Shown here: in pieces, positions 7,230-19,819 of the stretch
Layout of the letters: each line of letters starts with the position of its first letter
Numbering within the stretch: the first letter of the stretch is position 1
Translations under genes and position numbers: made by a program
Assembly (NCBI GenBank): GCA_029265615.1
Contig: JAJUIB010000010.1
Coordinates: 1-64,000, forward strand
Length of the DNA stretch: 64,000 bases
Origin: Spirochaetota bacterium
GTDB lineage: Bacteria; Spirochaetota; Spirochaetia; Treponematales; Rectinemataceae
Reading direction: 5' to 3'
The notes under the pieces: model-generated
What the model was told of the DNA's origin: nothing
The model's database searches: none
What the model saw: only the letters and a program-made list of their open reading frames with translations

Positions 7230-7688
7230 TCAATGGCGAACGCAGAGGTCGATCTCGAACTCACCGCCGGGCACAGAAAACCCGAGCGCGGTCACGGGGC
7301 CGATAGACGGCCAGCTTATGCGGTGCTGCGGTCCACGAATGACGACAGGCGGGGCGATTTCGATATCGAGACCGGCAAGTGCGGACGTGGCGGCGCCCGC
7401 CATGATGTTCGTTAGTTCGGCGACAAGGCCGCCCTCAAGGGCGCGCGCATCCTCGGCCGCGGCGACGCCGGTCGCTACAAGCAGCCTGCCGACGAGTTCG
7501 CCGGTCAGCCGGAATGCGACGACGCCTTGCGCCTGTCCTGCAAGACCGATCAGTCCCGATATATCCCAGTCGTGATCTTCATCCGCGTCGAGAACGCGAG
7601 GCGCCTTGGCCCGCGGCGACAGCCCAAACATGTCGCGGAAGGTTCCCTCCGCCGAAGCGCGAAACGCGTCGATAAGTTTCGATTCCAT
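7230..7688 (-). CDS. cheX: Chemotaxis protein CheX (CheY-P phosphatase)
   Basis: A 152-residue protein of the CheC/CheX/FliY phosphatase superfamily. The single-site signature ELTNIMAGAA (Glu91, Asn94) supplies the E-x2-N residues that position water to hydrolyse CheY phosphate. VVAFRLTGELVGRLL and the C-terminal GGEFEIDLCV strand also match CheX, which works as a beta-sheet-swapped dimer. Spirochaetes use CheX instead of CheZ, in line with the motility genes at the other end of this window. No other che gene lies beside it. A GGGGGAA sequence precedes ATG 7688. It is divergent from the VWA operon across 60 bases that hold that operon's promoter. Confidence 0.88.
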   Translation of the reverse strand: MESKLIDAFRASAEGTFRDMFGLSPRAKAPRVLDADEDHDWDISGLIGLAGQAQGVVAFRLTGELVGRLLVATGVAAAEDARALEGGLVAELTNIMAGAATSALAGLDIEIAPPVVIRGPQHRISWPSIGPVTALGFSVPGGEFEIDLCVRH

Positions 7689-7710: not shown

Positions 7711-7738
7711 TTGACGCCGCACATTCTTCATCTAGAAT
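7711..7738 (+). promoter_or_regulatory. Sigma-70-type promoter of the VWA/MoxR operon
   Basis: TTGACG at 7711-7716, a 16-base spacer and TAGAAT at 7733-7738. Five of six bases match consensus in each hexamer. It points toward the VWA gene starting at 7749, leaving only a few leader bases between the expected transcription start and the ATG. Confidence 0.6.
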
Positions 7739-7748
7739 AGAAGGTCAC

Positions 7749-10013
7749 ATGACAGGCCACAAGTGGGATGCGGCAAAAATCGCCGCCTGGACGTTCCCGC
7801 TTTTCCTTCTCGCCGCGTACGCCCTCGGCGCGGCCCTCCCGCTACCCGCCAGGCTTCTCCCCGAGCGTAGCTACCTTGCCTTCACGCGCGGTGCGAGCGC
7901 GGCCGAACTCAAGGCGGCGCGCGGCCGCGCTCGTGAGGCGTTTCTAGTTTTGCCCGACCGGCTCTTCCCCCTTCCCGGACGCGACGCCGATGTGGCGGCA
8001 TACGAACCTGCGGCACGACTGCTTCCCGAGCGGACGAATATCCAAGCAGTGCTCGCCGATCTTGTAGCGGCGAGTGGAGATGGATGGAAAAGCACGCCCC
8101 GCCGCGCACGACTTGTCATGGACGAAAGCCCGGGTATCGATGAGATCGCGGCGCTGGACGCGGTAGCGCGGCGGGTGGCATGGCCATTCTCCCTTGACCT
8201 TCGACCACGCACGGAGGCATCGGCGATCCTCGGACTTGCCTACCGCATCGCGCCAAACGACACGCGGCGGACTTTCGAGCTCGCGCTGTCTTCCCGCCTC
8301 CGGAATGCATCCTCGATCGTTGTGAGCGCGGGGACTGAAGCCGCGTCCCACGTGCTGTGGCGAGGAGATGGGGAAACGCTCCCCAAGGACCTCGTACTCA
8401 GACTCTCCGCGGAGTCAGCGGCGCTCGAAACGGGCATCTTTCTTGCGGTCGCCGGAAACGGGATGGATGAGCGGCGTCGGTTCGACCTTGCCGTCGAGTC
8501 GGCGGAGCGGCCGCGCGTCCTCGTCATAAGCGAAAAATCGAAAACCCTCCGCTCCTTCGTCGAACGCCTCTATCCTGCGGATCGGCTTTCCCCCGCGGAA
8601 GCAGCACTCCGGAACCTGCGCGCCTACGAACTCATCGTCATCGATGGCCTGCCCCTTAAGCGGCTCGAGCCTGAGCTGCGCGCCGAACTCCTCGACATCG
8701 CGCGGCGAAGGACGGGATCCATCCTGTTCGCCGCCGACTCCCCCGACTTCGGACGACGCGGCGACGATCCGGAGCTCGAGGCAATCCTTCCCGTCGCGCT
8801 CATGCCGCGCGAGCTTAAAAACATCCCCGATCTTGCGATCCTCATCCTCGTCGATGTCTCGGGCTCTATGTTCGGCGACAAGCTTTCGCTCGCCAAGGTA
8901 AGTGGCCTCGAGCTACTGCGCACCCTCAAACCGGGCGACAGGGTCGGTCTCATGCTCTTTTCCGACGAACGGCGCTGGATATACCGCTTCGAGCCGAATT
9001 CGGAAATTAGGGCGGCGCCGATCCTTGAGCCGCTCCGCGCAAAAGGAGGAACCGATCTCGCCGCCGCTCTCGACGAGGGGCTTGCCCTCCTCGCCGCCCA
9101 GGAGCGCAAGGAGCGGCACGTCGTTGTCATTTCAGACGGCGTCACCAAGCCCGCCGATTTTGCGGCCCTCGCCGACCGCGCAAGAAGCATCGGCGCGACG
9201 GTGTCGGCCATGGGAATCGGCGAAGAGGTTGACCGTTCACTGCTTGAACGCCTTGCCTCACGTTGCAAAGGCCGCTACTATGCAGTGCGCACGCCTGACG
9301 AAGTACCCGCCCTCCTCTTCGAAGACCGGAAAAGCGCTTCCCGACCGCCTTTCGCCGAGGGGAACATCCCCATTCTTGCTCTCAACGGCACACGTATCGC
9401 AAACGTCGGCGGCATGGCGCAGTATGCGGCGAGCGAACCCGCGACCGTGCTCTTTGCCAACGAGTTCGGCGATCCGCTTTTCGCTTCGCGCGAATACGGA
9501 AACCGCGCCATCATGCTCTTTGCAAGCGACCTGTATGGCGGGTACACGGCGGATTTTTTCGCAAGCGTCGACGCAGCGGGCGCTATAAAAGACAGACTCG
9601 ATGCCCTCTTCGCCGAAAAGCCGCTTGAAGTGTCAGTCAGCGAGAACGCACGGGGTCCCTTCGTCCTTGTGACGAGCGACGCGCTCGTCGCCCCTCGAAT
9701 TCTCATAACGCGAGAGGGAGAGTCACCGCGAGAACGCTCCTTTGACCGGGCTGGTGCCGGGGCCTGGGCGGCACGTATTGCGCTTCCAAATGCGGGGCGT
9801 TATCACGCCGCCGTCATCGACCGCGGTTCGGCCATCGCCTCATTCCCCCTCGCATCGAATCCCGGACTTGCGGGCATCGATCAAGGAGCGGCCAATGCGG
9901 TATTGCGCATCCTGTCTCGAGCGGTTTTCTGGTGTCATGACGACAGGCTATGGCTTGCGCTCTTTTTCGCCGCAAGCCTTGCCTGCACCATTATTCTTAG
10001 AGTAAAGAGATGA
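7749..10013 (+). CDS. Membrane-anchored VWA protein with amidotransferase-like segment
   Basis: A 754-residue protein. An N-terminal TM helix (about residues 13-33, AAWTFPLFLLAAYALGAAL) precedes a long extracytoplasmic region. Residues about 270-350 (YELIVIDGLPLKRL, GSILFAADSPDFGRRG) resemble the class-I glutamine-amidotransferase-like fold that often sits before VWA domains in large membrane VWA proteins. The VWA domain (about 363-540) has an intact metal-ion site: LVDVSGSM at 367-374, GGTDLAAALDEGL and VVISDGV. A C-terminal hydrophobic helix (LWLALFFAASLACTII) ends the protein. AGAAGG precedes ATG 7749. First gene of an eight-gene run with overlapping or very short junctions that includes MoxR and DUF58. 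Its role is inferred only from that context: probably metal-dependent protein binding at the membrane, controlled by the MoxR ATPase. Confidence 0.82.
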   Translation: MTGHKWDAAKIAAWTFPLFLLAAYALGAALPLPARLLPERSYLAFTRGASAAELKAARGRAREAFLVLPDRLFPLPGRDADVAAYEPAARLLPERTNIQAVLADLVAASGDGWKSTPRRARLVMDESPGIDEIAALDAVARRVAWPFSLDLRPRTEASAILGLAYRIAPNDTRRTFELALSSRLRNASSIVVSAGTEAASHVLWRGDGETLPKDLVLRLSAESAALETGIFLAVAGNGMDERRRFDLAVESAERPRVLVISEKSKTLRSFVERLYPADRLSPAEAALRNLRAYELIVIDGLPLKRLEPELRAELLDIARRRTGSILFAADSPDFGRRGDDPELEAILPVALMPRELKNIPDLAILILVDVSGSMFGDKLSLAKVSGLELLRTLKPGDRVGLMLFSDERRWIYRFEPNSEIRAAPILEPLRAKGGTDLAAALDEGLALLAAQERKERHVVVISDGVTKPADFAALADRARSIGATVSAMGIGEEVDRSLLERLASRCKGRYYAVRTPDEVPALLFEDRKSASRPPFAEGNIPILALNGTRIANVGGMAQYAASEPATVLFANEFGDPLFASREYGNRAIMLFASDLYGGYTADFFASVDAAGAIKDRLDALFAEKPLEVSVSENARGPFVLVTSDALVAPRILITREGESPRERSFDRAGAGAWAARIALPNAGRYHAAVIDRGSAIASFPLASNPGLAGIDQGAANAVLRILSRAVFWCHDDRLWLALFFAASLACTIILRVKR

Positions 10014-11017
10014 GGCGACAATTCACGGCGATTTCGGCCCTCGCACTCTGCGCGGCATTCCTCCCCATCGGCGCGGCGCCGCTCGATCGCGGGGCGGCGC
10101 TTGCGGTCGTCGCTTCGGACATCCGGCCCTATCGCATCTGCCGGGCAAAGGTGATCCCCGAAGAAGGCTTCCCCGGTAGCCTCCGCGTCATCGCAATTGA
10201 TTTCACCGGCGCTGAGCGAACGCTTTTCGAAGCTACATACGAAGCCTACGCAGAAGCCGCACAGGTCGCGTTCTACCTTGATGAGGAGATAAAATCCCTA
10301 CGCTTCGAAGCGTCCCTCGCATCAGGACGCGCGGTCGCAACCATCGACCTCGGCGCCGACACACCAATCGCGGATGCGGCAGAAACCGCGCGGCTCGCCC
10401 GCATGCGCGTCCTCGCCCCGCCGCCCTACCTTGTCGGCTCAAGCGCCCCTTACCGCCTTGCGTTCAACGAGACAAGCATCGAAGGCGCAAGTGGTCCCAC
10501 CACGGGAATGCTCGCGCCGCGCCCTCCCCTTGCGGCGCTTGCCGTTCTTGCTGCCTTCGTCGGCGCGGCAACGGCGCTGGAAAGCGTTAAGAACTACCGC
10601 GCCCGACTCGGTGCGATCATCGTTACGAGTGTCATTGCGGCGCTGGCCGCCGTGCTCCTTGCGAGGCCTGAGGCGGTCCTGGCTGTCGTGCGGCTTCCGA
10701 ATGCGGCAGACAAGGCGGATGCGGCCGCACCCCGGCTTTCGGGACGGCTCGAGGCCGTTGAGGAAGCGCAGAACGGCATTCTTATGCGCAGGTACGGAGA
10801 GCGCCATAGCGGCGCCGAAGGAGGCCTTTCGCTTATTGGTCTTGCAACGCCAGGGAGAAGTACAGTACCTCTCAGTCTCGTCATGGGCGATCTCGCCATT
10901 GGCGAGGACGTGAATTGTCGCTTCTTCAAGCCTCCCCTCATTATCGAACGCGATGGTTCGTTCGCCCTCCGCGCGCATGAGCCGATGCTGGGCTGGTTGC
11001 TCCATGCGCGGCCATAG
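10010..11017 (+). CDS. Unrecognised exported/membrane protein of the VWA/MoxR operon
   Basis: 335 residues, no family recognised. A signal peptide or TM is visible at the N-terminus (RRQFTAISALALCAAFLPIGAAP). About 150 extracytoplasmic residues are followed by two hydrophobic helices (PPLAALAVLAAFVGAATAL at about 172-190, and IIVTSVIAALAAVLLA at about 203-220) and a soluble C-terminal domain of about 110 residues ending in RAHEPMLGWLLHARP. The start ATG overlaps the stop of the preceding VWA gene as ATGA, and the end overlaps the next gene by 14 bases, so translation is coupled. Composition matches its neighbours. Position suggests a subunit or partner of the VWA protein. Confidence 0.7.
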   Translation: MRRQFTAISALALCAAFLPIGAAPLDRGAALAVVASDIRPYRICRAKVIPEEGFPGSLRVIAIDFTGAERTLFEATYEAYAEAAQVAFYLDEEIKSLRFEASLASGRAVATIDLGADTPIADAAETARLARMRVLAPPPYLVGSSAPYRLAFNETSIEGASGPTTGMLAPRPPLAALAVLAAFVGAATALESVKNYRARLGAIIVTSVIAALAAVLLARPEAVLAVVRLPNAADKADAAAPRLSGRLEAVEEAQNGILMRRYGERHSGAEGGLSLIGLATPGRSTVPLSLVMGDLAIGEDVNCRFFKPPLIIERDGSFALRAHEPMLGWLLHARP

Positions 11018-11477
11018 GCTGGTCGCAAGATTCCTCGCGCTCATTCCCCTGCTGGGAGCCGCAGTGCTCTCCGCCTCGGGAGTGATCGCCACGCCGAGGA
11101 CGGGCGCACTGTTCTTCGCACTCGCATCATACGCAAGGCTCGCCGCCCATGCGCTTGAACTTGACGGGAAAGAGAGCGCGATCCTTGCCCTCGAACACAC
11201 GCCCTTTTTAATCTTCGCATTCGCACGAAGCGGGTCTAAAGAGGGCATAACGGCCTTCGCCGAGGCGGCTTCGGCAATCATAGCTTGGGCCACGCTCATC
11301 GCGCTCGAAGAGCTATTGCGCACGCGGCGGCATGGCTTTGCGGCTGTCATTCTCTTCTCGATCTCAGCCGCGGGACTCGGCGTAGCCATCGAAACAGTCC
11401 CGCTTGCGACGGCAGCGGCGGCGACGACAACCCTCTCGCTTGCAGGTTATGTGATGCTACGACGGAGGGGGCGATGA
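11004..11477 (+). CDS. Small polytopic membrane protein of the VWA/MoxR operon
   Basis: 157 residues, mostly hydrophobic, with about four to five predicted TM helices (FLALIPLLGAAVLSASGVI; ALFFALASYARLAAHAL; ITAFAEAASAIIAWATLIAL; FAAVILFSISAAGLGVAI; ATTTLSLAGYVML) and a basic C-terminal end (RRRGR). No family is recognised. It overlaps the previous gene by 14 bases and shares ATGA with the next, so it is real and translationally coupled despite the lack of homology clues. A scaffold or membrane partner role is possible but only inferred. Confidence 0.65.
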   Translation: MRGHRLVARFLALIPLLGAAVLSASGVIATPRTGALFFALASYARLAAHALELDGKESAILALEHTPFLIFAFARSGSKEGITAFAEAASAIIAWATLIALEELLRTRRHGFAAVILFSISAAGLGVAIETVPLATAAAATTTLSLAGYVMLRRRGR

Positions 11478-12616
11478 TACACAAGCCCCAAAACGCGGAT
11501 CTTCGCGAATTAGAACGCGGCATAAAACGTCGGCTCCTCCGCCATGTGCAGGTAAGCCTCCGCCGCCAGTTCGCCATCTGGGCGCTCTGCTCACTCGCCG
11601 TCTGGGGGCTCGCCAACGCCGTCTTCCTGCTTGCCGCAGCTCCTCGCGAGGCGGCGACCGGTCTTGCCCTCTTCCTGGCCTCCCTTCTCCCTGCATTCCT
11701 CCTCTGGCCCGAGAGCTTCGAGGCTCTGACACACGCGCTCCGCTGCGTCGATCCCGACACCGTGATCGAGGCATGGCTCGATGCGCCGCGGGGCCCAGCG
11801 AAAGAGATTCTTGCACGCCGCGTGGCGGAACGATCCGCCCTCCTCGCACGCGAGCGGTCGCCGCGCGAAAAGGCGCGTGCGGGGCTCCGCCCTCTTGCTC
11901 TTGCCGCGGCCGCATCCATCGCGCTCTTCGAAGCGGTCGCACTTGCCACCCACGGAACGCCACTTACCATAGCCGTGCCCCGTGAGCCAGTCATAGCGCG
12001 CCACGACGATGAAAAGAGCTTCGCAGCTCCAGAAGAAGCGGATCAAGCGGCTCGTGACGAATTCCCTAAGCCTTTTGAAACGGAGCGGGTGCAGGATCGG
12101 CCCGAGGCCTCGCCACCCCGCGGCTCTGCGAACGAAGCCCGTGCGGACAGGGAACGCGGGGCAGAAGCGCGTAAAGAAACGCAGCTTGCGCTTGAGAGCG
12201 CATCGAACAGCGCTCCCGACGCAGAAGAGGACATGCGGCGATCGGCGGAGATACCGAGGGACGCTTCTCGCGCCACGGATCCAGGGATGGGCGCCGTGCA
12301 TAATGCCTCGTCGCAGGCATCGCGCGACTCAGAGAATCGAGGAAAGAGTGCAGCTCCAACGGGCTGGGAAGCCGCCGATGAAAGCCTTGTCAGAAGCCCC
12401 CTCGTTGACTATCGCGCTCGCTTTTTCCGCGTCCTTGCCGAGCGCACCCGCATGGAAGTGGAGGCGGGCGAAAGACTCTCGCTTGCGGAGCTCCGTTCGT
12501 ATGAGCGGCGCTACTTTACATCGTTTTCACTTCCGGCGGGCATCGTTCCCCGCGAAGACGCCTTTGCGGCGCTTCTCAAACGCCGGTGGCGCGAGCTTTT
12601 TGGCGAAGCGCGGTAA
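11474..12616 (+). CDS. Unrecognised two-to-three-TM protein with long charged linker
   Basis: 380 residues. Residues 1-30 are basic and cytoplasmic. TM helices lie at about 31-52 and 60-78 (QFAIWALCSLAVWGLANAV; AATGLALFLASLLPAFLLW). A helical domain follows (FEALTHALRCVDPDTVIEAWL), then another hydrophobic stretch near 145-160. About 140 residues of Glu/Arg/Ala/Ser-rich low-complexity linker come next, and a conserved-looking C-terminal domain (VDYRARFFRVLAERTRMEVE; LAELRSYERRYFTSFSLPAG). The layout vaguely recalls the large unannotated proteins in other MoxR/VWA operons, but no family is assigned. ATGA overlap with the preceding gene. Confidence 0.65.
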   Translation: MIHKPQNADLRELERGIKRRLLRHVQVSLRRQFAIWALCSLAVWGLANAVFLLAAAPREAATGLALFLASLLPAFLLWPESFEALTHALRCVDPDTVIEAWLDAPRGPAKEILARRVAERSALLARERSPREKARAGLRPLALAAAASIALFEAVALATHGTPLTIAVPREPVIARHDDEKSFAAPEEADQAARDEFPKPFETERVQDRPEASPPRGSANEARADRERGAEARKETQLALESASNSAPDAEEDMRRSAEIPRDASRATDPGMGAVHNASSQASRDSENRGKSAAPTGWEAADESLVRSPLVDYRARFFRVLAERTRMEVEAGERLSLAELRSYERRYFTSFSLPAGIVPREDAFAALLKRRWRELFGEAR

Positions 12617-12657
12617 GGAGGAAGGTCACGTTCAACACCACAAGCAGAGCGCGACAC

Positions 12658-13323
12658 ATGGAGGCGCAGCATCGCCCCGCGATGAGGACTTCCTCTGGGC
12701 CTAGCGCAGTCGCCGCCATTGGCTACATAGCCATAGGCGGAGCCGCGTTATACGGCAGCATAGTCACCATCGAAGGCCTTGCCGCAGCACTTCATTACGC
12801 AGATGAGCCGCTTCGACTTGCGCGGAACGCCTTCATCGAGGAGGGCGCAAAGGCAGTTCTTCTGTTCGTATCCGCGACCGCGAACAGCGCTGCCGCGAAA
12901 AAGACGACGATGCGCGCACGGTCCTATGCGGCAGCACGCGGTCTTTCGCTCGGCCTTGCCGCGGTCGCTGCATTCGCGGCGCTCGAAACTTTTGTGTACT
13001 TCCTCGCCTTCCCAAGCCGCGGAACGGTCATGCGACTCCTCTGGTCGCTACCCACGCACCTGGTTGCCGCCTTCGCAACCGCCCTCGGCGCTGCGGAGTT
13101 CCTCGTAAAAGGTCAGAAGGTGATGCGGGAAGCCTTGTGCTTCCTGTGCGGCTTTTTCTCCGCGGTCGCCTGGCACCTTGCCGCAAATCTCCTTGCGGCG
13201 CAGGGCCCCGCCCCGTGGATATTCGTAGTCTGGTCGATCGCGAACTTCGCGGCGCTTTTTGCGCTCGGTGGCGCGTTTTTGAAAAACGTTCTCCTGGGAG
13301 GATTTCTTCATGGGCAAAGCTGA
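12658..13323 (+). CDS. PrsW-like glutamic-type intramembrane protease
   Basis: 221 residues with about seven TM helices. It has the full pattern of conserved PrsW motifs: FIEEGAKAVLL (Glu61-Glu62, Lys65), AAFAALETFVYFL (Glu110), LPTHLVAAFATALG (His134) and AWHLAANLL (His173, Asn177). In PrsW (Bacillus subtilis site-1 protease for anti-sigma RsiW) these Glu and His residues in TM helices are needed for cleavage. The start is uncertain. ATG 12658 is used; ATG 12682 is the alternative, and AAGGAGG at 12615-12621 lies upstream of both. It sits between the linker protein and moxR and overlaps moxR by 14 bases, so it is part of the operon. Its substrate is unknown; the operon's membrane proteins are the obvious candidates. 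Confidence 0.72.
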   Translation: MEAQHRPAMRTSSGPSAVAAIGYIAIGGAALYGSIVTIEGLAAALHYADEPLRLARNAFIEEGAKAVLLFVSATANSAAAKKTTMRARSYAAARGLSLGLAAVAAFAALETFVYFLAFPSRGTVMRLLWSLPTHLVAAFATALGAAEFLVKGQKVMREALCFLCGFFSAVAWHLAANLLAAQGPAPWIFVVWSIANFAALFALGGAFLKNVLLGGFLHGQS

Positions 13324-14401
13324 GCATGAACGCGGCCGCGAATCCGACACCGCGCGCGGCGACACCAACGAACGACGCCCTGGAGCGAACAGCAGCTACG
13401 GCACGGAGAGCCTCGAGCGCGACCTCGAGACGGTAGCAGAATTCGCGCAGGCATATCGCGGATATCTTGAATCGCGCATAGTGGGCGCATCCAGCATCGT
13501 CGATAGGCTTTTCATCGCCCTCCTCTGCGAGGGCAATGTGCTCCTCGAAGGGGCGCCGGGTCTCGGCAAAACCAGCCTTGCCAAAGCCTGGGCAACATTC
13601 CTCGGTCTTGAGTTGCGTCGCGTGCAGTTCACCCCCGACCTCATGCCGCTCGACGTCATCGGTTCGAGCGTGCTTGATAACGATCCCGAAGGCGGGCGCT
13701 CCTTCAGGTTTTACGAGGGTCCCATCTTCGCAAACATTGTGCTAGGAGATGAAATAAACCGAGCCACGCCGAAGACGCAATCAGCATTCCTTGAGGCCAT
13801 GGAGGAAAAGCGCATTACCTTCCTCGGAAAGACACGCGAACTGCCTTCACCATTCTTCGTCATTGCAACGCAGAACCCAATAGAGCTCGAGGGAACCTAC
13901 CCCCTGCCCGAAGCGCAGATCGACCGTTTCCTGATGCGTCTTTTTTTCACGATGCCCGATTTCACGACATTGAGATCCATCCTCGACGCCACGGAAAGAG
14001 CGGGGCTCGGCTCCCCCGCTGGTAGGGAGGCGACACTCGCAGCGATCGAGGCACACCGACGCGCCTCGGCCGAGATCATCGTGCCTGAGGAGGTCAAAAG
14101 CTTTATCGCACGTCTTGTCATTGAAACACATCCGGAGAGGAGTTCCGTCGAATCAGTGCGAAAGTACGTCCGCTACGGCGCATCGCCTCGTTGCGCCCTT
14201 GGTCTTTTGCGCGCGGGCAAAGCGCGGGCAATTGCTGCGGGGAGACCGAACCTCTCCTTCGAGGATGTTGAAAATCTCTTCGTCGACGTTGCAAATCATC
14301 GCGTCATACTCGGCTTTGAGGCGGAGGCCGAGGGCATCGGGACCGGTGAAGTTCTTGCGGCGGTGCTCGCGGCGGCACGGCGCGAATATCGGGGGTTTTG
14401 A
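13310..14401 (+). CDS. MoxR-family AAA+ ATPase
   Basis: 363 residues. After a charged N-terminal extension of about 35 residues come Walker A GAPGLGKT (81-88), FTPDLMPLDVIGS, Walker B IVLGDEINRA, the EAMEEKRITFLG loop, sensor-1 VIATQNPIELEGTYPLPEAQIDRFLMR, and the C-terminal lid with SPRCALGLLRAGKARAIAAGRP. This is the standard MoxR chaperone-like ATPase that acts with VWA-domain partners. GGGAGG lies upstream of ATG 13310. It is followed without a gap by the DUF58 gene (TGA then GTG), the usual MoxR-DUF58 pairing. The N-terminal extension is longer than in most MoxR proteins. Confidence 0.95.
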   Translation: MGKAEHERGRESDTARGDTNERRPGANSSYGTESLERDLETVAEFAQAYRGYLESRIVGASSIVDRLFIALLCEGNVLLEGAPGLGKTSLAKAWATFLGLELRRVQFTPDLMPLDVIGSSVLDNDPEGGRSFRFYEGPIFANIVLGDEINRATPKTQSAFLEAMEEKRITFLGKTRELPSPFFVIATQNPIELEGTYPLPEAQIDRFLMRLFFTMPDFTTLRSILDATERAGLGSPAGREATLAAIEAHRRASAEIIVPEEVKSFIARLVIETHPERSSVESVRKYVRYGASPRCALGLLRAGKARAIAAGRPNLSFEDVENLFVDVANHRVILGFEAEAEGIGTGEVLAAVLAAARREYRGF

Positions 14402-15289
14402 GTGACATCCTACGGGGGAAAAACCGCAAGGCACGCGGGGGCCTGTGCGCTCATCGACCCCGAGGCCGCCTCGCTCATCCGCGCATTTCGACGCCGCACA
14501 CCACGCCGCCCTCCCCTCGCCGCCGAAGTGAGCCGCGACCCGATGTTCCGCCGCACAGGCTCGTCATTCGATCTTAAGAACATCCGCGAATACCAATTTT
14601 CGGACGATCCGCGGCGGATAGATTGGAAGCTCGAGGGCCGGACGGGCCGCCTCTATGTCAAGGAATACTACGACGAGGAACGGGAAGGGGCGGCGTTGCT
14701 CGTCGACCTTTCAGGCTCGCTCGGGGTCTTCGGCGCACTAGATGCGCGACGTGTCGGCGCAACGCTTGCCTATCTGATCTCTGCGCTCGGCCTCTCGGTC
14801 AGTCTGGCAGTCTTCGACACGGCAACACGGCGAAGGCTCGCGCTGAGACGCGGAGGGGCAGTGCCGAGCGCCATTGCCACGTTCTTCTCCGACCTTGCGC
14901 CGGAGGGCCGCACCGACATCCGTGCTGCACTCGCCGAAGCGCGCGCGGCGAGTCGCCACCGCAGGCTCGTTCTCGTATCCGATTTTTTCGACCGCGGCTT
15001 TCAGCCTGCACTGAGCCCCTTTTCCCGCAATTTCTTCGTGTGGCTGTACCGGCCCTTAGAGGATCTAGGACCGGGGAACGGCGAGATCGAGGTCGAGGAT
15101 CCGGAAACAATGAGCCGCCTGCATCTCCCCTGGGATGAGGCCGCCAAAGCCGCCTACCGACGCCGGGAGGCCGAACTCGCGGCGCGATTCCGCGACGCCG
15201 AGCGTGCGGGAGCCTTCTACGCGCGCGTACAGCCCGAAACGCCAAAGCGCGGCCTCTATTGGTCGTTTCTTGAGGCGCTCTATGCCTAG
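14402..15289 (+). CDS. DUF58 domain protein (MoxR partner)
   Basis: 295 residues starting at GTG 14402, the base after the moxR stop. The DUF58 signature IREYQFSDDPRRIDWKLEGR (61-80) with LYVKEYYDE follows, then a VWA-like fold with LVDLSGSL (Asp102-x-Ser104-x-Ser106, a complete MIDAS triplet) and LVLVSDFFDRGF. Unlike many DUF58 proteins it lacks N-terminal TM helices, so it is probably cytoplasmic and can contact MoxR directly. It overlaps the next VWA gene by eight bases. Confidence 0.92.
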   Translation: MTSYGGKTARHAGACALIDPEAASLIRAFRRRTPRRPPLAAEVSRDPMFRRTGSSFDLKNIREYQFSDDPRRIDWKLEGRTGRLYVKEYYDEEREGAALLVDLSGSLGVFGALDARRVGATLAYLISALGLSVSLAVFDTATRRRLALRRGGAVPSAIATFFSDLAPEGRTDIRAALAEARAASRHRRLVLVSDFFDRGFQPALSPFSRNFFVWLYRPLEDLGPGNGEIEVEDPETMSRLHLPWDEAAKAAYRRREAELAARFRDAERAGAFYARVQPETPKRGLYWSFLEALYA

Positions 15290-16979
15290 TTTTTTCGAAC
15301 CCCTTCTCCTCCTCCTCGCACCCGTCGCCGCACTCCTTTTTTTGAACTTGCGGCTTTCAAGACGCCTTGTCTACCCGCATGAACTCCTTGCGGAAGAAGT
15401 CCGCAAGACTGCGGCGACCATGTTTTTCCGCGCTATCCGAGCCTATTACGACCTGCTTTTCGACATGGGGATTGCCGTTGTCGCAGCGCTTGCGATCGCC
15501 GCATGGGCCGCATCCCAGGGGGATGTTCCGCCTGGTAGCGCGGCGCGAAAGAGCAATGCTGCTGTCGTCATCGACTGTTCAAGGTCTATGTTCATGGGGC
15601 GGCCGGGGAGCCGCCCCCTCGACCTCGCGCTCAAATTCCTTTCGAGCGATCAAGAGCTCGCTCAGGCTAAAGCGTTTGCACTCGCATTCGATCCCTCGAG
15701 CCTCAAAAGCCGCCTGACGCCCCTTTACCCCATCTTCGGCAGGGAAAAGCGCGGCCATAGAGACATCGTCGTTGACAACATCGCCGCCGACGGCACCTTT
15801 GCCGACACTAGCGTTGCGTCGGCGCTACTTCGAGCCGAGTTCGACTTCTTCGCAGTCGACTACAGCGTGATGGACGAGTTACGGCGCAAGGGATTCGATC
15901 GCATAACGCTCATAACCGACTTTTTCCCGGAACGTCCTGTTGGTTTTGAGGTTGTCGAAGTCGGCTTCGCCGACGGGACGCCGCGAACCGCCGAATATGA
16001 AGCCGCCGAAGCGACGACCTCCGGCGCCGAGAGGGGCGGGTTTTCAGCCTATCCCACCTCAATCCGGCTCGATGGGGCATCAGGGACATTTCTCGTGGCA
16101 TTCGCCGAATCAGGGCCGCGCGACGGACTCGAAATCGGAGCACTTCGCGAAGACGGCACGACGTTCCCACTCCCCGTCGAACGGTTCCGCATCGAGGAGC
16201 GGGCCGTCGGCCGCGCAATCCGCATCGCCTCGGACGGCCTCTACCTTGTCAGATTGCGGGCGCCCCAGGGCGAGGAGGACGCCGTGTTCGCCTTCCGCCT
16301 CCCTTCCGGGACGATTCATGCCGCCGCGAACGGTCCCTTCTCCGCGCGCGTCCTCGACGCCCTGCCCTACCTCGAGCGATCGACCCGCCCCGAGCTCCTT
16401 CTCGCGGACGGCGACCTTGCGCAGCCGGGCACTCCTGCTCCCCGTAGCACCCCAGGCGGGGCGATGACGATCCGCGGCGCAACACGCCTTGTGCGAACAC
16501 ACATTGTCGAGAGCGATGAGCGGGAACTCCTTTCCGCGGCATTCTCCGGAGCCCGGCTTATCGTCGGTGGCGCGCGCGGAGGCGCTCAGCCGTCACAGGC
16601 TCCACACAGGGATGCGACCAGACGGGGCGACATCGAATGCCTACTCGGCCCGGCGGCGCGTGCAAACGAGGACCTAGCCCTTTTCTATGACGGCATCATC
16701 ACATCGACGGCAGAAATGCCGTTTGCAACCGCAGTTCCAGAGGGCACGCGTCATCTCATTCCGCTCGCACCGGGCACCTACCTCGCAGAGACGCCGCGGG
16801 GCATGGTGCCGCTCAACGCGCCACCAAGGGAGTTCTTCGTCCCCTCGCGCGAAGGCGTCATGCGCCTGCCACCCCAACCGCCAGGGCGCATGCTCTACGC
16901 CACCCTCCTTGCGCTTCTTTTCGCGGGCAAGCTCCTCGCGTGGCGGCTTTCGTCGGGCAAATCCCTCGTGTCCCGCTGA
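15282..16979 (+). CDS. BatA/BatB-like membrane VWA protein
   Basis: 565 residues. The N-terminal helix FFEPLLLLLAPVAALLFLN with following Arg residues is the usual start of BatA-type proteins. A second TM is at about 62-78. A VWA domain then starts with VVIDCSRSM (Asp98-x-Ser100-x-Ser102, complete MIDAS), but the rest of the domain is divergent. A beta-rich extracytoplasmic region of about 300 residues leads to a final TM (MLYATLLALLFAGKLLAW) at about 540-557. It closes the operon. Bat proteins are linked to envelope stress and aerotolerance in Bacteroides and Leptospira, but the function here is inferred only. Confidence 0.8.
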   Translation: MPSFFEPLLLLLAPVAALLFLNLRLSRRLVYPHELLAEEVRKTAATMFFRAIRAYYDLLFDMGIAVVAALAIAAWAASQGDVPPGSAARKSNAAVVIDCSRSMFMGRPGSRPLDLALKFLSSDQELAQAKAFALAFDPSSLKSRLTPLYPIFGREKRGHRDIVVDNIAADGTFADTSVASALLRAEFDFFAVDYSVMDELRRKGFDRITLITDFFPERPVGFEVVEVGFADGTPRTAEYEAAEATTSGAERGGFSAYPTSIRLDGASGTFLVAFAESGPRDGLEIGALREDGTTFPLPVERFRIEERAVGRAIRIASDGLYLVRLRAPQGEEDAVFAFRLPSGTIHAAANGPFSARVLDALPYLERSTRPELLLADGDLAQPGTPAPRSTPGGAMTIRGATRLVRTHIVESDERELLSAAFSGARLIVGGARGGAQPSQAPHRDATRRGDIECLLGPAARANEDLALFYDGIITSTAEMPFATAVPEGTRHLIPLAPGTYLAETPRGMVPLNAPPREFFVPSREGVMRLPPQPPGRMLYATLLALLFAGKLLAWRLSSGKSLVSR

Positions 16980-17071: not shown

Positions 17072-18463
17072 ATGACCAAATCACACCGCATTCCCCTCCT
17101 CGGTTCCGCGGGCTTTTACCGCGAAGCGCTCGCGATCGTTGTCCCCGTGATGCTCCAATCGCTCGTCACGGGCTTAGTCTCGCTCGTCGACAACTTCATG
17201 GTCGCCGCCCTGGGCGACGCGAAAATGGCGGGCGTGAACGTGGCGAATCAGATTAATTTCGTCTACCTTGTGATCGTCAACACCGTCTGTATGGCGGGGG
17301 GGATATATCTCTCCCAGCATCGCGGCGCGAACGATGAGGAAGGCATGCGCCAGGCATTCCGTTTCAAGCTTGTCGCAGCGGGCATCGTATCCGCGGTCCA
17401 CCTCATCGTCTGCCTGGCCGTTCCAGAACCCATGCTCCGCCTGATGCTCGGAGGGAACCCCGAGGGAGAGCGCATCGTCGCCGAGGGCGCCCGTTATCTT
17501 CGTGCGGTGTCCGCATCGTTCTTGCCAATTGGATTCGCATCAGCGATGGCGACCTCGTTCCGCGACATCGGCGTCACAAAAGTGCCGCTCCTCGTCTCGA
17601 CAAGCGCAGCCCTCGTCAATACATTTTTCAATTGGGTGCTCATCTACGGCAACCTCGGCGCGCCCCGTCTCGAGGCGCAGGGCGCCGCAATCGCCACTGT
17701 GATCGCCCGCCTTGTCGAGACAGGCGCCTTCGCACTCATGCTGCGAAAGCTCCGTCCCGCCTTCGCGGTTTCGCCTCGCCGCGTCTTCGACATCGACCGG
17801 GGGCTCTTCGGAGCCATCCTCTCACGTTCGGGCATGATGCTCTTTTCGGAAACCGCATGGGTCCTCTCTGAGACCATCATCACCGCCCTGTACAACGGCC
17901 GCGGTGGCGCGGAAACTGTCGCAGGCATGGCCGCAGGCTGGACGATAGCCAACCTCATTTTCCTTGTCTTTCCCGCCATCCATGCAGCCACAGGCGTCAT
18001 CGTGGGCGCCACGCTCGGCTCGGGCAAACTCGAGGAAGGGCGACACAAGGCCCGATGGATCATGTCAGGCGCCGTCATCTTCGGGCTATTCGCCTCCGCG
18101 GCGGCCGCGCTTGCCACCCTCGCTATTCCCCTCGTGTTCGGAAATCTTTCAGACAGCGCGCGTGCTGTAACACGGGGGCTCGTATTCGTGATCGCCGGCT
18201 ACCTTCCGCTGTGGTGCCTCCTCAACGCCCAGTTCGCCGTCTCGCGTTCAGGGGGTGACACACTCATGGGCGTCTGGGTTGATGTGGGCGTCACCTACGC
18301 CGTGTTTATCCCTGCGGCCCTCGCGATAGCGGGTCTTACAAGCTGGGGGCCTGTCGCCCTTTTCGGCGTCGCAAAGGTCTCCGACATTCCAAAGGCCGCA
18401 GTTGCGCACTGGTGGCTCAAAAAGGGACGCTGGGTGAAAAACCTCGCCGCGGAACGCCCTTAG
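17072..18463 (+). CDS. MATE-family multidrug/toxin efflux protein
   Basis: 463 residues and 12 predicted TM helices in two homologous halves: EALAIVVPVMLQSLVTGLVSLVDNFMVAALGD at the start (shown by MLQSLVTGLVSLVDNFMV), and ILSRSGMMLFSETAWVLSE opening the second half. The LVDNFMVAALGD motif in TM1 is characteristic of NorM/DinF-like exporters using a Na+ or H+ gradient. AGGA lies five bases before ATG 17072. It is a single gene after the VWA operon (92-base gap) and convergent with the NlpC lipoprotein gene, overlapping it by four bases. Drug specificity cannot be read from sequence. Confidence 0.93.
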   Translation: MTKSHRIPLLGSAGFYREALAIVVPVMLQSLVTGLVSLVDNFMVAALGDAKMAGVNVANQINFVYLVIVNTVCMAGGIYLSQHRGANDEEGMRQAFRFKLVAAGIVSAVHLIVCLAVPEPMLRLMLGGNPEGERIVAEGARYLRAVSASFLPIGFASAMATSFRDIGVTKVPLLVSTSAALVNTFFNWVLIYGNLGAPRLEAQGAAIATVIARLVETGAFALMLRKLRPAFAVSPRRVFDIDRGLFGAILSRSGMMLFSETAWVLSETIITALYNGRGGAETVAGMAAGWTIANLIFLVFPAIHAATGVIVGATLGSGKLEEGRHKARWIMSGAVIFGLFASAAAALATLAIPLVFGNLSDSARAVTRGLVFVIAGYLPLWCLLNAQFAVSRSGGDTLMGVWVDVGVTYAVFIPAALAIAGLTSWGPVALFGVAKVSDIPKAAVAHWWLKKGRWVKNLAAERP

Positions 18464-19011
18464 GGGGGAATAAGCCTAAGCCTGCCAAAATGGATAAACT
18501 TGGGTGAGTCTGCAGGATAGCTCCGCTCACTCACGCAGCCAGTGATAGTCGTCGCATCAATGAAATGATACGTATTTCCTATTTCCGCCACCTCGACCCG
18601 GACAAAAAGTGCCACGTGTTCCACCATCTTGTCGCCCATGAAGCAAAGGTCGCCTTCCTCGGGCACTTCGACCTGATCACAATACGCCTGCATTCCAGCT
18701 GTGTTCATGTCATCAAAGGGAAGACGATAGCCGAAATCTGATGCAGCGTACGCATAGCAGCGCACCACGAGGCCCGAACAGTCAACATAAATCGTCCGGG
18801 GTAGCGGGTCCTGAGCTCCCCATGCGTATGCCGCTTTTTCTTCGATATATCTTTGCGCATAGTCAAGGGCCCGCTTGCGCAGAGCTACAGGGGCCGGAAC
18901 AGTTGCGGAGCCCGGAAGCAAAGGCTGCGTACATGCCACAAGCGCAATACATATTAGCGCACATGAGGCAAATGCGCCGACTGCCGGGAAAGGCTTGTTG
19001 CGCGGAAGCAC
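18460..19011 (-). CDS. NlpC/P60-like lipoprotein peptidase
   Basis: 183 residues from a GTG start at 19011. The N-terminus MLPRNKPFPAVGAFASCALI leads into a lipobox LVAC (Cys27), so the protein should be lipidated and face the periplasm. The catalytic domain has YVDCSGLVVRCYAYA (Cys78, the NlpC/P60 DCSG motif), EGDLCFMGD, EHVALFV (His132) and YHFID, giving a Cys-His-His peptidase expected to cut gamma-D-Glu-diamino acid bonds in peptidoglycan. The start lies 10 bases after the rhomboid stop and within a perfect hairpin, so it may be translationally controlled. Other starts upstream would overlap the rhomboid gene without adding a better signal. Confidence 0.75.
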   Translation of the reverse strand: MLPRNKPFPAVGAFASCALICIALVACTQPLLPGSATVPAPVALRKRALDYAQRYIEEKAAYAWGAQDPLPRTIYVDCSGLVVRCYAYAASDFGYRLPFDDMNTAGMQAYCDQVEVPEEGDLCFMGDKMVEHVALFVRVEVAEIGNTYHFIDATTITGCVSERSYPADSPKFIHFGRLRLIPP

Positions 19012-19020
19012 AACAAGCCT
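18991..19020 (-). other. Perfect 10-bp hairpin at the rhomboid/NlpC junction
   Basis: AGGCTTGTTG at 18991-19000 is the exact reverse complement of 19011-19020, with a 10-base loop. In the leftward mRNA the stem begins right after the rhomboid UAG and includes the first base of the proposed GUG start. No U-tract follows, so it is more likely an RNA structure affecting initiation or stability than a terminator. Confidence 0.6.
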
Positions 19021-19819
19021 ACTCGATGATCCACCAGTAGCTCCTGCCGGGAAGCCCCCTGCGAAGCAAGGCCTCGCGCTCCGCGGCCAGGCGCCGCGCC
19101 TCGCTTTTGCGGTAGCGCCGCGCCCAGAGCCAGCCAATGGCGAAGCCGCCAAGGTGTGCGGCATAGGCGACACCACCTGCGCTCCAGTCCGAAAGCCCCC
19201 CCACAACCTGCATGACAAACCAGAGACCGATGACGACCCAGGCATGGAGCGCAGTCGGTAGAAAGCCGAACATGAGGACAGTCACACGATTCCCAGGAAA
19301 GAGCACAAGATACGCGGCCATGATCCCCGATATCGCGCCCGAAGCGCCGACCATCGGCGTGTAGAGCCCTTCGCCGAGAACAGCGCAGCCAATTGCATGG
19401 ACAAACGTTCCGACAATCCCCGCACCCAGATAGAGAGCAAGGTAGCGAAGCCTCCCGATCCTGCACTCAACATTGTCGCCGAAGACGGCGAGAAAAAGCA
19501 TGTTTCCCAAAAGATGTGCAAGACCGCCGTGGAGAAACATCGACGTGAAGAGGGTGAGGATGATGGGGATCGGAGTGCGGGCGAGGCCCTGCACCTCGAT
19601 GAGGCGCCCCGAGAAGGGGTCAAGAAGCCGCTGGGTGGCGGATACGACATCCTTGCCAGAAAGAAGCTCCGCAGGCACGGCCGCATAGGCCGAGATAACG
19701 CCCGCATCGGTCCCGAAGCCCTGGATAAAGATAAACACGAGGCAGTTGAGCGCAATGATGGTCCAGGTGAGCCATGCGGCGCCCCGCCTGCAACTGTTGT
19801 CATCGCCAATCGGTATCAT
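19019..19819 (-). CDS. Rhomboid-family intramembrane serine protease
   Basis: 266 residues and about six TM helices. Catalytic features are the L1/TM2 motif HGGLAHLLGNMLFL (His102, Asn106), the serine motif GASGAISG (Ser160) and AHLGGFAIGW (His222). These give the Ser-His dyad and oxyanion residues of active rhomboids, so it should cut TM helices within the membrane. The C-terminal tail (RYRKSEARRLAAEREALLRR) is charged and cytoplasmic. It lies 26 bases downstream of the nicotinate phosphoribosyltransferase gene on the same strand, probably in the same transcript. Confidence 0.92.
   Translation of the reverse strand: MIPIGDDNSCRRGAAWLTWTIIALNCLVFIFIQGFGTDAGVISAYAAVPAELLSGKDVVSATQRLLDPFSGRLIEVQGLARTPIPIILTLFTSMFLHGGLAHLLGNMLFLAVFGDNVECRIGRLRYLALYLGAGIVGTFVHAIGCAVLGEGLYTPMVGASGAISGIMAAYLVLFPGNRVTVLMFGFLPTALHAWVVIGLWFVMQVVGGLSDWSAGGVAYAAHLGGFAIGWLWARRYRKSEARRLAAEREALLRRGLPGRSYWWIIE

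What the first reader, a model, noticed from the sequence alone, without database searches (positions are those of the whole stretch)
7749..16979. Eight-gene MoxR/VWA/DUF58/PrsW operon with three unknown membrane proteins
Seen: eight plus-strand genes with overlapping or short junctions (the largest gap is about 40 bases), headed by one clear promoter at 7711-7738. They encode two VWA proteins with intact metal sites, a MoxR ATPase, a TM-less DUF58 protein, a PrsW-like intramembrane protease and three membrane proteins of no recognised family. Known: MoxR-DUF58-VWA (Bat) clusters work as membrane-linked chaperone or envelope-stress systems. Inference: adding an embedded PrsW-type protease suggests a system in which metal-binding VWA sensors are worked on by MoxR and a membrane partner is cleaved, perhaps an anti-sigma-like switch. 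I know of no described Bat operon with this combination.
Basis: partly seen in the sequence, partly recalled or inferred. Interest (0 to 1): 0.72.

Follow-up and report, generated by a model that had tools for sequence, protein, structure and literature searches.

The report
MoxR membrane machine with built-in protease
Some spirochaete bacteria carry one tightly linked set of eight genes that joins an ATP-driven protein-remodelling ring (MoxR) to a protease embedded in the membrane (PrsW type), a pairing we did not find described and which suggests a new kind of membrane-protein processing machine.

Summary
Eight plus-strand genes (7749-16979) form one translationally coupled unit. The block recurs in Spirochaetota: in 18 of 18 genomes with gene 8 (the window's own included) the PrsW gene lies directly before, and overlaps, moxR. 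But the locus was detected in only 19 of 116 genomes searched. Two MAGs titled Holophagaceae have it too, probably by transfer. The PrsW call is right: the published PrsW motifs are present (glutamates and histidines invariant in 19 of 19), operon copies of four genomes pass the PF13367 cut-off, and the best fold match is APH-1 (Z 15; high but not decisive for a helical protein). The window's own copy fails the curated cut-offs. TAGAAT lies 10-11 nt before the gene-1 ATG in 12 of 15 loci: one nearly leaderless promoter.

It is not the Bat operon: the genome has a separate one, and all 21 operon MoxRs examined form one clade apart from 17 other MoxRs. The anti-sigma idea has no support. Best reading: a dedicated MoxR/VWA membrane-protein remodelling or quality-control machine with an intramembrane glutamic protease as a subunit. 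Catalysis and substrate are untested; in one distant family the gene in slot 5 lacks most motifs, so a scaffold role stays open.

The parts
7711..7738 (+). Promoter, TTGACG-16-TAGAAT; -10 hexamer 10 nt before the ATG, so a nearly leaderless mRNA is expected
   Evidence: TAGAAT 10-11 nt before an in-frame ATG in 12 of 15 loci, window included; only 3 TAGAAT in the 64-kb window against 8.4 expected from base composition
7749..10013 (+). g1, 754 aa: N-terminal TM, VWA domain (364-520) with complete MIDAS, C-terminal TM
10010..11017 (+). g2, 335 aa: signal/TM, Ig-like domain, TM hairpin, second beta domain; no known family
   Evidence: on one ORF with g1 in one genome, G048
11004..11477 (+). g3, 157 aa, small protein with three hydrophobic segments, no known family
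11474..12616 (+). g4, 380 aa: three hydrophobic segments, low-complexity linker, conserved C-terminal segment (SPLVDYRARF..)
12682..13323 (+). g5, 213 aa (221 if from 12658): PrsW-type intramembrane glutamic protease; E53 E54 xx K57, F98xxxE102, H126, H165xxxN169
13310..14401 (+). g6, 363 aa MoxR AAA+ ATPase; start overlaps the end of g5 by 14 nt
14402..15289 (+). g7, 295 aa DUF58 (VWA-like) protein, taken as cytosolic
15282..16979 (+). g8, 565 aa BatA-like protein: two N-terminal hydrophobic segments, VWA-like domain with DxSxS and D but no conserved Thr, long C-terminal part

Best explanation
The eight genes encode one inner-membrane machine. SHOWN: a co-inherited unit with overlapping genes and one conserved promoter, holding a MoxR ring ATPase, a DUF58/VWA partner, two membrane-anchored VWA-type proteins, an Ig-like membrane protein, two further membrane proteins and an intramembrane protease of the PrsW type with an intact active-site set. 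INFERRED: the MoxR hexamer docks through the soluble VWA partner (g7), as NorQ does with NorD, onto a membrane complex built from g1/g2, g3/g4 and g8; VWA metal sites hold a client membrane protein; ATP hydrolysis remodels the client, or gates access to g5, which cleaves inside the membrane. The likely output is maturation or quality control of particular envelope proteins. The client is unknown and may lie outside the operon.
For: g5 lies beside g6 in 18 of 18 genomes with g8, and no change of gene order was seen (several blocks are cut by contig ends); the block is also in a distant family, G184. g5-g6 overlap of 14, 20 or 26 nt in 20 of 20 junctions (19 genomes; G015 twice); g7-g8 overlap of 8 nt in 17 of 18 (starts picked by rule). 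One promoter with a conserved -10 position, 12 of 15 loci. g5: E53, E54, E102, H126, H165, N169 invariant in 19 of 19 while mean column identity is 34%; these match the four PrsW motifs as given in PMC12943098 (passages), including the 24-residue step from the second-motif Glu to the third-motif His; 4 of 19 orthologues match PF13367 (E up to 1 allowed, best 5.9e-10), and operon copies of four genomes (G015, G048, G056, G083) are over its cut-off; model pLDDT 89.3, APH-1 at Z 15.0, rmsd 3.4, 179 residues. g1 and g2 share one ORF in G048. 21 operon g6, G133, G144 and G184 included, form one clade against 17 other MoxRs. NorQ/NorD mechanism: PMC9976466 (passages).
Against: No catalysis or complex is shown. 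The locus was not detected in 97 of 116 genomes, among them the one other same-genus genome, so it is dispensable. In G133 and G144 the protein in slot 5 keeps only EExxK of the PrsW motifs, and homology to g5 is not detectable. G059 lacks g2 and g3. Window g5 has no Pfam PrsW hit and scores 15.8 bits against a 225-bit NCBIfam cut-off. Helical models of unrelated proteins reach Z of about 14 by the tool's own note, and Foldseek gave no E below 0.001. Correlated gene distances (0.80-0.91 over seven genes, g3 left out) are expected from shared inheritance alone.
Confidence: 0.5

Rival explanations
1. g5 is a structural subunit, like APH-1 in gamma-secretase, and not a working protease: it organises the VWA proteins in the membrane for the MoxR ring.
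For: Best fold match is APH-1, Z 15.0, then a chain of the multipass translocon entry 7tm3, Z 13.0. In G133/G144 the protein in slot 5 lacks, as aligned, the second-motif Glu and both His.
Against: The active-site set is invariant in 19 of 19 copies and present in G184 and both Holophagaceae copies; the G133/G144 proteins may not be homologous at all.
Confidence: 0.22
2. A variant of the Bat (aerotolerance) operon doing the same job as Bat.
For: MoxR, DUF58 and VWA proteins in common; g8 has a BatA-like N-terminus in 2 of 16 members, weak, best E 0.064.
Against: The same genome has a separate Bat-type cluster with MoxR, DUF58, two VWA proteins, a TPR protein and two proteins without Pfam match; operon MoxRs form a clade of their own; no TPR gene here.
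Confidence: 0.12
3. A regulated-proteolysis switch that frees a sigma factor from an anti-sigma factor, as PrsW does with RsiW.
For: It is the characterised role of PrsW in the passages read (PMC4602095, PMC12943098).
Against: No sigma or anti-sigma gene among g1-g8 or the 7 neighbours scanned; the neighbours that recur in relatives are a CheX-like gene and a nicotinate phosphoribosyltransferase. Unlinked targets were not sought.
Confidence: 0.08
4. Unrelated membrane genes merely lie in one operon.
For: Patchy distribution: 19 of 116 genomes.
Against: Order and overlaps kept across families and in two Holophagaceae MAGs; g1 and g2 share an ORF in G048.
Confidence: 0.04

Closest known systems
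Bat operon of spirochaetes and Bacteroides (MoxR, DUF58, BatA, BatB, BatC, BatD)
   Same: MoxR ATPase, DUF58, membrane VWA proteins
   Different: No TPR (BatC); has PrsW, an Ig-like membrane protein and two further unknown membrane proteins; its MoxR belongs to another clade; coexists with a Bat-type cluster in the same genome
NorQ/NorD and RavA/ViaA (MoxR-VWA chaperone pairs)
   Same: MoxR ring with a VWA partner acting on a membrane enzyme (NorQD)
   Different: Here seven further subunits, most of them membrane proteins and one a protease
PrsW (B. subtilis) / CAAX-type glutamic intramembrane proteases / APH-1
   Same: All four sequence motifs; best fold match APH-1
   Different: Very divergent, six helices in the model, fixed overlap with moxR; the other PrsW genes examined in the relatives have no MoxR or DUF58 in the stretch searched
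MoxR-vWA ternary conflict systems (PMC7159879, passages)
   Same: MoxR plus vWA plus further subunits; g6 scores on the bpMoxR profile (2.9e-8)
   Different: No VMAP, iSTAND, FtsH or beta-propeller component was recognised; the held main text has neither PrsW nor DUF58

Membership tests
PrsW family (PF13367 / NF033739) | Four motifs EExxK, FxxxE, H, HxxxD/N | tested here: met
   E53, E54, E102, H126, H165, N169 invariant 19 of 19; position 57 R in 11, K in 8; position 98 F in 12, L in 5, V in 2; motifs as given in PMC12943098 (passages)
PrsW family (PF13367 / NF033739) | Profile score over the curated cut-off | tested here: inconclusive
   Window copy: no PrsW hit in Pfam, NCBIfam E 0.0082 and far below cut-off; 4 of 19 orthologues match PF13367 at E up to 1, best 5.9e-10; operon copies of four genomes are over its cut-off
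PrsW family (PF13367 / NF033739) | PrsW/APH-1 helical fold | tested here: met
   Top three rows are APH-1, Z 15.0, 14.6, 14.4; then 7tm3_6 13.0, then CcmB 11.3. Caveats: helical models without a clear match typically reach 14 (note); Foldseek best E 0.069, also APH-1; no PrsW structure was among the rows
PrsW family (PF13367 / NF033739) | Proteolytic activity | not testable with these tools
   needs an assay
Bat operon | MoxR and DUF58 | tested here: met
Bat operon | Two BatA/BatB-type VWA proteins | tested here: inconclusive
   g8 only weakly BatA-like; g1 hits a BatA model through the VWA domain alone
Bat operon | TPR protein BatC in the operon | tested here: not met
   no TPR in g1-g8; present in the genome's own Bat-type cluster
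Bat operon | Its MoxR belongs with the Bat-type MoxRs | tested here: not met
   Tree: 21 operon g6 in one clade (support 0.99 or more) against 16 MoxRs found beside DUF58 in Spirochaetota genomes plus one from L135; of these clusters only that of G000 was checked gene by gene. Identities alone are less clear: window g6 48-50% to distant g6 and 40% to own Bat MoxR, but L126 g6 47-48% and 47%
MoxR-vWA ternary conflict systems | VMAP, iSTAND, FtsH or beta-propeller third component | tested here: not met
   none recognised among g1-g8 in Pfam, NCBIfam or PADLOC; g8 has one weak hit, E 0.014, to a helical region of the FtsH-system vWA protein
PrsW/RsiW-type sigma switch | Linked sigma/anti-sigma pair | tested here: not met
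   none in g1-g8 or the 7 neighbours scanned; unlinked pairs were not sought

The most novel reading that the evidence does not exclude
A MoxR AAA+ ring and an intramembrane glutamic protease are fixed subunits of one bacterial machine: an ATP-driven membrane protease with ring and protease on separate chains, built around the same fold that gamma-secretase uses as APH-1, with VWA metal sites holding the client.
Probability: 0.3. Interest if true: 0.82.

Novelty: new variant of a known kind. Interest (0 to 1): 0.62.

Why it matters
MoxR/DUF58/VWA systems are widespread, yet for most their client and action are unknown. Deleting batABD in Leptospira biflexa changed neither growth, morphology nor tolerance to peroxides and superoxide; the one protein change reported was a lower HtpG level (PMC3557215, passages). 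A built-in protease with a recognisable active site gives a handle: catalytic point mutants and substrate traps could reveal what such a machine acts on. It would also link AAA+ remodelling to intramembrane proteolysis in a new way.

Tried and rejected
g5 as a chance look-alike of PrsW: rejected by motif invariance and orthologue hits, with the fold in agreement. Other PrsW genes of the relatives beside MoxR: 20 loci, most of them of a second PF13367 class, with up to 8 kb on each side (less at contig ends), and 30 stretches of 2.3-3.6 kb around the best PF13367 hits (29 newly brought in plus L001), gave no g6, g7 or g8 match (L066 is the L001 gene with wider flanks). One search listed more PF13367 places than these 50, so this is a part. 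G026 and G060 matches to g5 (E 0.005 and 0.009, stops inside) were dropped as spurious: no operon gene near them. g2 fold search: only generic Ig/Fn3-like matches to the N-terminal domain (Z up to 8.7), no function. g8 profile against PDB sequences: nothing. PADLOC: hits only for g6, all to AAA-type proteins. Profile comparison with the proteins in slots 2-5 of G133/G144: g3, g4 and g5 not significant, g2 E 0.00024 but probability 43%.

The Spearman correlations were not used as evidence of function, as no unlinked control genes were included. PMC3482391 (passages) proposes PrsW as an export and processing route for polymorphic toxins; no toxin domain was recognised here, so this was not pursued. 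A claim that the pairing is undescribed rests only (open-licence PMC papers; of the 34 papers ten were listed; a paper with all three terms would have come first, and none did).

Full report
What is there. Eight plus-strand genes occupy 7749-16979 with junctions of -4, -14, -4, +41, -14, 0 and -8 nt (+65 if g5 starts at 12682, as its orthologues suggest). Pfam names only g1 (VWA), g6 (MoxR AAA_3 plus lid) and g7 (DUF58); g2, g3, g4, g5 and g8 have no match below E 0.01. NCBIfam gives g5 its only hit, PrsW, at E 0.0082 over residues 46-186.

Source. The window is part of contig C45 of a 2.7-Mb genome. Contig lengths and positions of its nearest carriers equal those of MAGs titled Spirochaetaceae or Spirochaetes (G003 = JANYKC010000019.1, G004 = JANXYO010000122.1, G002 = JAKLFE010000004.1), so it is a member of the Spirochaetota (inference).

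Conservation. In 116 genomes (the window's own and relatives), g8 is found in 18 and g5 by single-sequence search in 18; 15 are shared. Iterated profiles on the fetched loci show g5 next to g6 in all 18 g8 genomes. In several the block is split or cut by contig ends, and genes beyond an end were not scored. G015 has g5-g6 on two short contigs without g8, making 19 of 116 with the locus. Two g5-only matches (G026, G060) were dropped. Many of the other genomes are incomplete, so 97 without detection is an upper bound of true absences. G059 lacks g2 and g3; in G048 and G056 the g3 slot holds about 0.5 kb without a detectable g3. In G048 g1 and g2 hit the same ORF (one search shows the same contig again), a single case.

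Wider distribution. Across the phylum, 7 of 344 sampled genomes, own included, have g8 at E 1e-6; three are new. G184 carries recognisable g1 (cut by the stretch fetched), g2, g4, g5, g6, g7 and g8, with an ORF of g3 size in the g3 slot. G133 and G144 carry g1, g6, g7, g8 with four ORFs of like size in between (g1 of G144 is cut by the contig end). A scan of genome contigs with g1 found 267 relatives, of which the best 80 were kept (79 loci): 16 Spirochaetota contigs and 2 from MAGs titled Holophagaceae hold the block or part of it (L132 only g1). The other 61 have a g1-like VWA protein and no g5 match; L134 and L135 (L135 titled Candidatus Riflebacteria) also have a g7 match, L135 a MoxR on the other strand, and four more have weak g6 or g7 matches.

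Holophagaceae copies. L117 and L118 nest inside the Spirochaetota copies related to the window (g1+g6+g7 tree: the clade with L119 and L120 has support 0.994, that with the window and L116 1.0; g6 tree alike). They share upstream ORFs with each other that matched no spirochaete flank compared. Among 150 genomes searched around G405 only G405 and G406 have g8, which suggests that G405 is not of the window's family. Transfer from a spirochaete is the simplest reading; mis-binning of a contig in both MAGs is not excluded.

One transcription unit. TAGAAT stands 10 (10 loci) or 11 (2 loci) nt before an in-frame ATG of g1 in 12 of 15 loci examined, window included; the exceptions are the two Holophagaceae copies and L129. 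In four loci this ATG lies upstream of the start picked by rule. A TTG-type -35 lies 16-18 nt upstream in all 12. Some of these loci are close relatives, so they are not 12 independent cases. With a start site about 7 nt after the -10 (general knowledge), the mRNA would be almost leaderless. g5 and g6 overlap in 20 of 20 junctions by 14, 20 or 26 nt (starts picked by rule), so separate expression of the two halves is unlikely; transcripts were not measured.

g5 is a PrsW-type protein. Invariant columns of 19 sequences include E53, E54, E102, R118, P124, H126, H165 and N169. PMC12943098 (passages) gives the B. subtilis motifs as E75E76xxK79, F110xxxE114, H138, H175xxxD/N179, with E75A/E76A and H175A of functional importance; PMC4602095 (passages) puts EExxK, the His of helix 5 and HxxxD into the predicted active site and names APH-1 as a member of the superfamily. 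PF13367 matches 4 of 19 orthologues at E up to 1, best 5.9e-10; the operon copies of G015, G048, G056 and G083 are over its cut-off; and a g5 profile finds other PF13367 proteins (best 2.5e-7). The AlphaFold2 model (pLDDT 89.3, six helices) aligns best with APH-1 (Z 15.0, rmsd 3.4, 179 residues), then 7tm3_6 (Z 13.0), then CcmB (11.3). Foldseek ranks APH-1 first too, but with E 0.069. The tool notes that helical models without a clear match typically reach Z 14, so the fold supports the call but would not carry it alone.

Results against a purely catalytic role. In G133/G144 the proteins in slot 5 keep EExxK but, as aligned, neither the later Glu nor either His; profile comparison with g5 finds nothing, so they may be decayed homologues or replacements. 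The window's genome also has a conventional PrsW elsewhere (C41), and 82 of 116 genomes have PF13367 matches, operon copies counted; of the 50 other PrsW stretches examined none holds a MoxR or DUF58 match.

Other parts. g1 has a complete MIDAS (D369, S371, S373, T435, D463; 11 of 11). g8 keeps DxSxS and D213, and an invariant D193, but the only conserved Ser/Thr column between them is residue 212, next to D213 (16 sequences). g7 reads DLSGS, T and SDF in the window sequence. g2 is modelled (pLDDT 83.6) as an Ig-like domain 31-113, hairpin 174-217 and a second beta domain. g4 and g3 have three hydrophobic segments each. That the VWA-type proteins face the periplasm is an assumption.

Not Bat. 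The genome's C18 locus holds MoxR, DUF58, a 317-aa protein, two VWA proteins, a TPR protein and a 568-aa protein, the Bat order (order recalled; domain list in PMC5700661 passages). In a tree of MoxR proteins, 21 operon copies (window, 15 Spirochaetota of the two main families, L117, L118, G133, G144, G184) form one clade with support 0.99 or more against 17 others: 16 found beside DUF58 in 16 Spirochaetota genomes, eight of which also carry the operon, and one from L135. A seventeenth stretch, L224, gave no MoxR match; two of the sequences used were short pieces (L211, L219). No g5 match lies in these stretches. Plain identities point the same way for the window (48-50% to G133 and G184, 40% to its Bat MoxR) but not for every copy (L126: 47-48% and 47%).

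Mechanism. PMC9976466 (abstract and passages) describes a MoxR ring (NorQ) plugged by a VWA protein (NorD) whose metal site is proposed to bind a membrane enzyme, with ATP hydrolysis needed for its activation. By analogy g6-g7 would act on the membrane complex. Where a cleavage product would go is unknown. Catalysis, complex formation and client are all inference.

Literature. Full-text searches for PrsW with MoxR gave 0 papers; MoxR with CAAX 2, each with one mention of either word (listing only); of the ten listed for two of DUF58/PrsW/intramembrane none held DUF58 (listing only).

Noticed in passing
window 19022-19819 (-) and 18463-19053 (-): A rhomboid intramembrane protease (PF01694, 4.5e-31) and an NlpC/P60 protein lie about 2 kb downstream of the operon.
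   Followed up: no
L202, L203 (G133, G144): Distant operons in which the membrane protein in slot 5 keeps only EExxK of the PrsW motifs: a possible natural test of protease against scaffold.
   Followed up: partly
L117, L118: Operon copies in two MAGs titled Holophagaceae, nested among spirochaete copies: probable transfer between phyla.
   Followed up: partly
L049:4622-7768 (same contig as L123): g1 and g2 on one ORF of 1049 aa.
   Followed up: partly
L052 (G059): Operon without g2 and g3, g1 followed 35 nt later by g4: these two subunits may be dispensable together.
   Followed up: no
L110:13449-14558 (-) (G031): A g4-profile match (1.4e-5) with no MoxR, DUF58 or g8 match in the 16.5-kb stretch; possibly composition.
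   Followed up: no
L135: A Riflebacteria contig with a g7-like DUF58, a g1-like VWA protein and, on the other strand, a MoxR, but no g5 match: a possible distant relative of the system without the protease.
   Followed up: partly
window 7233-7688 (-): A CheX-like gene (PF13690, 9.2e-13) divergent from the operon; similar opposite-strand ORFs precede it in several relatives.
   Followed up: partly
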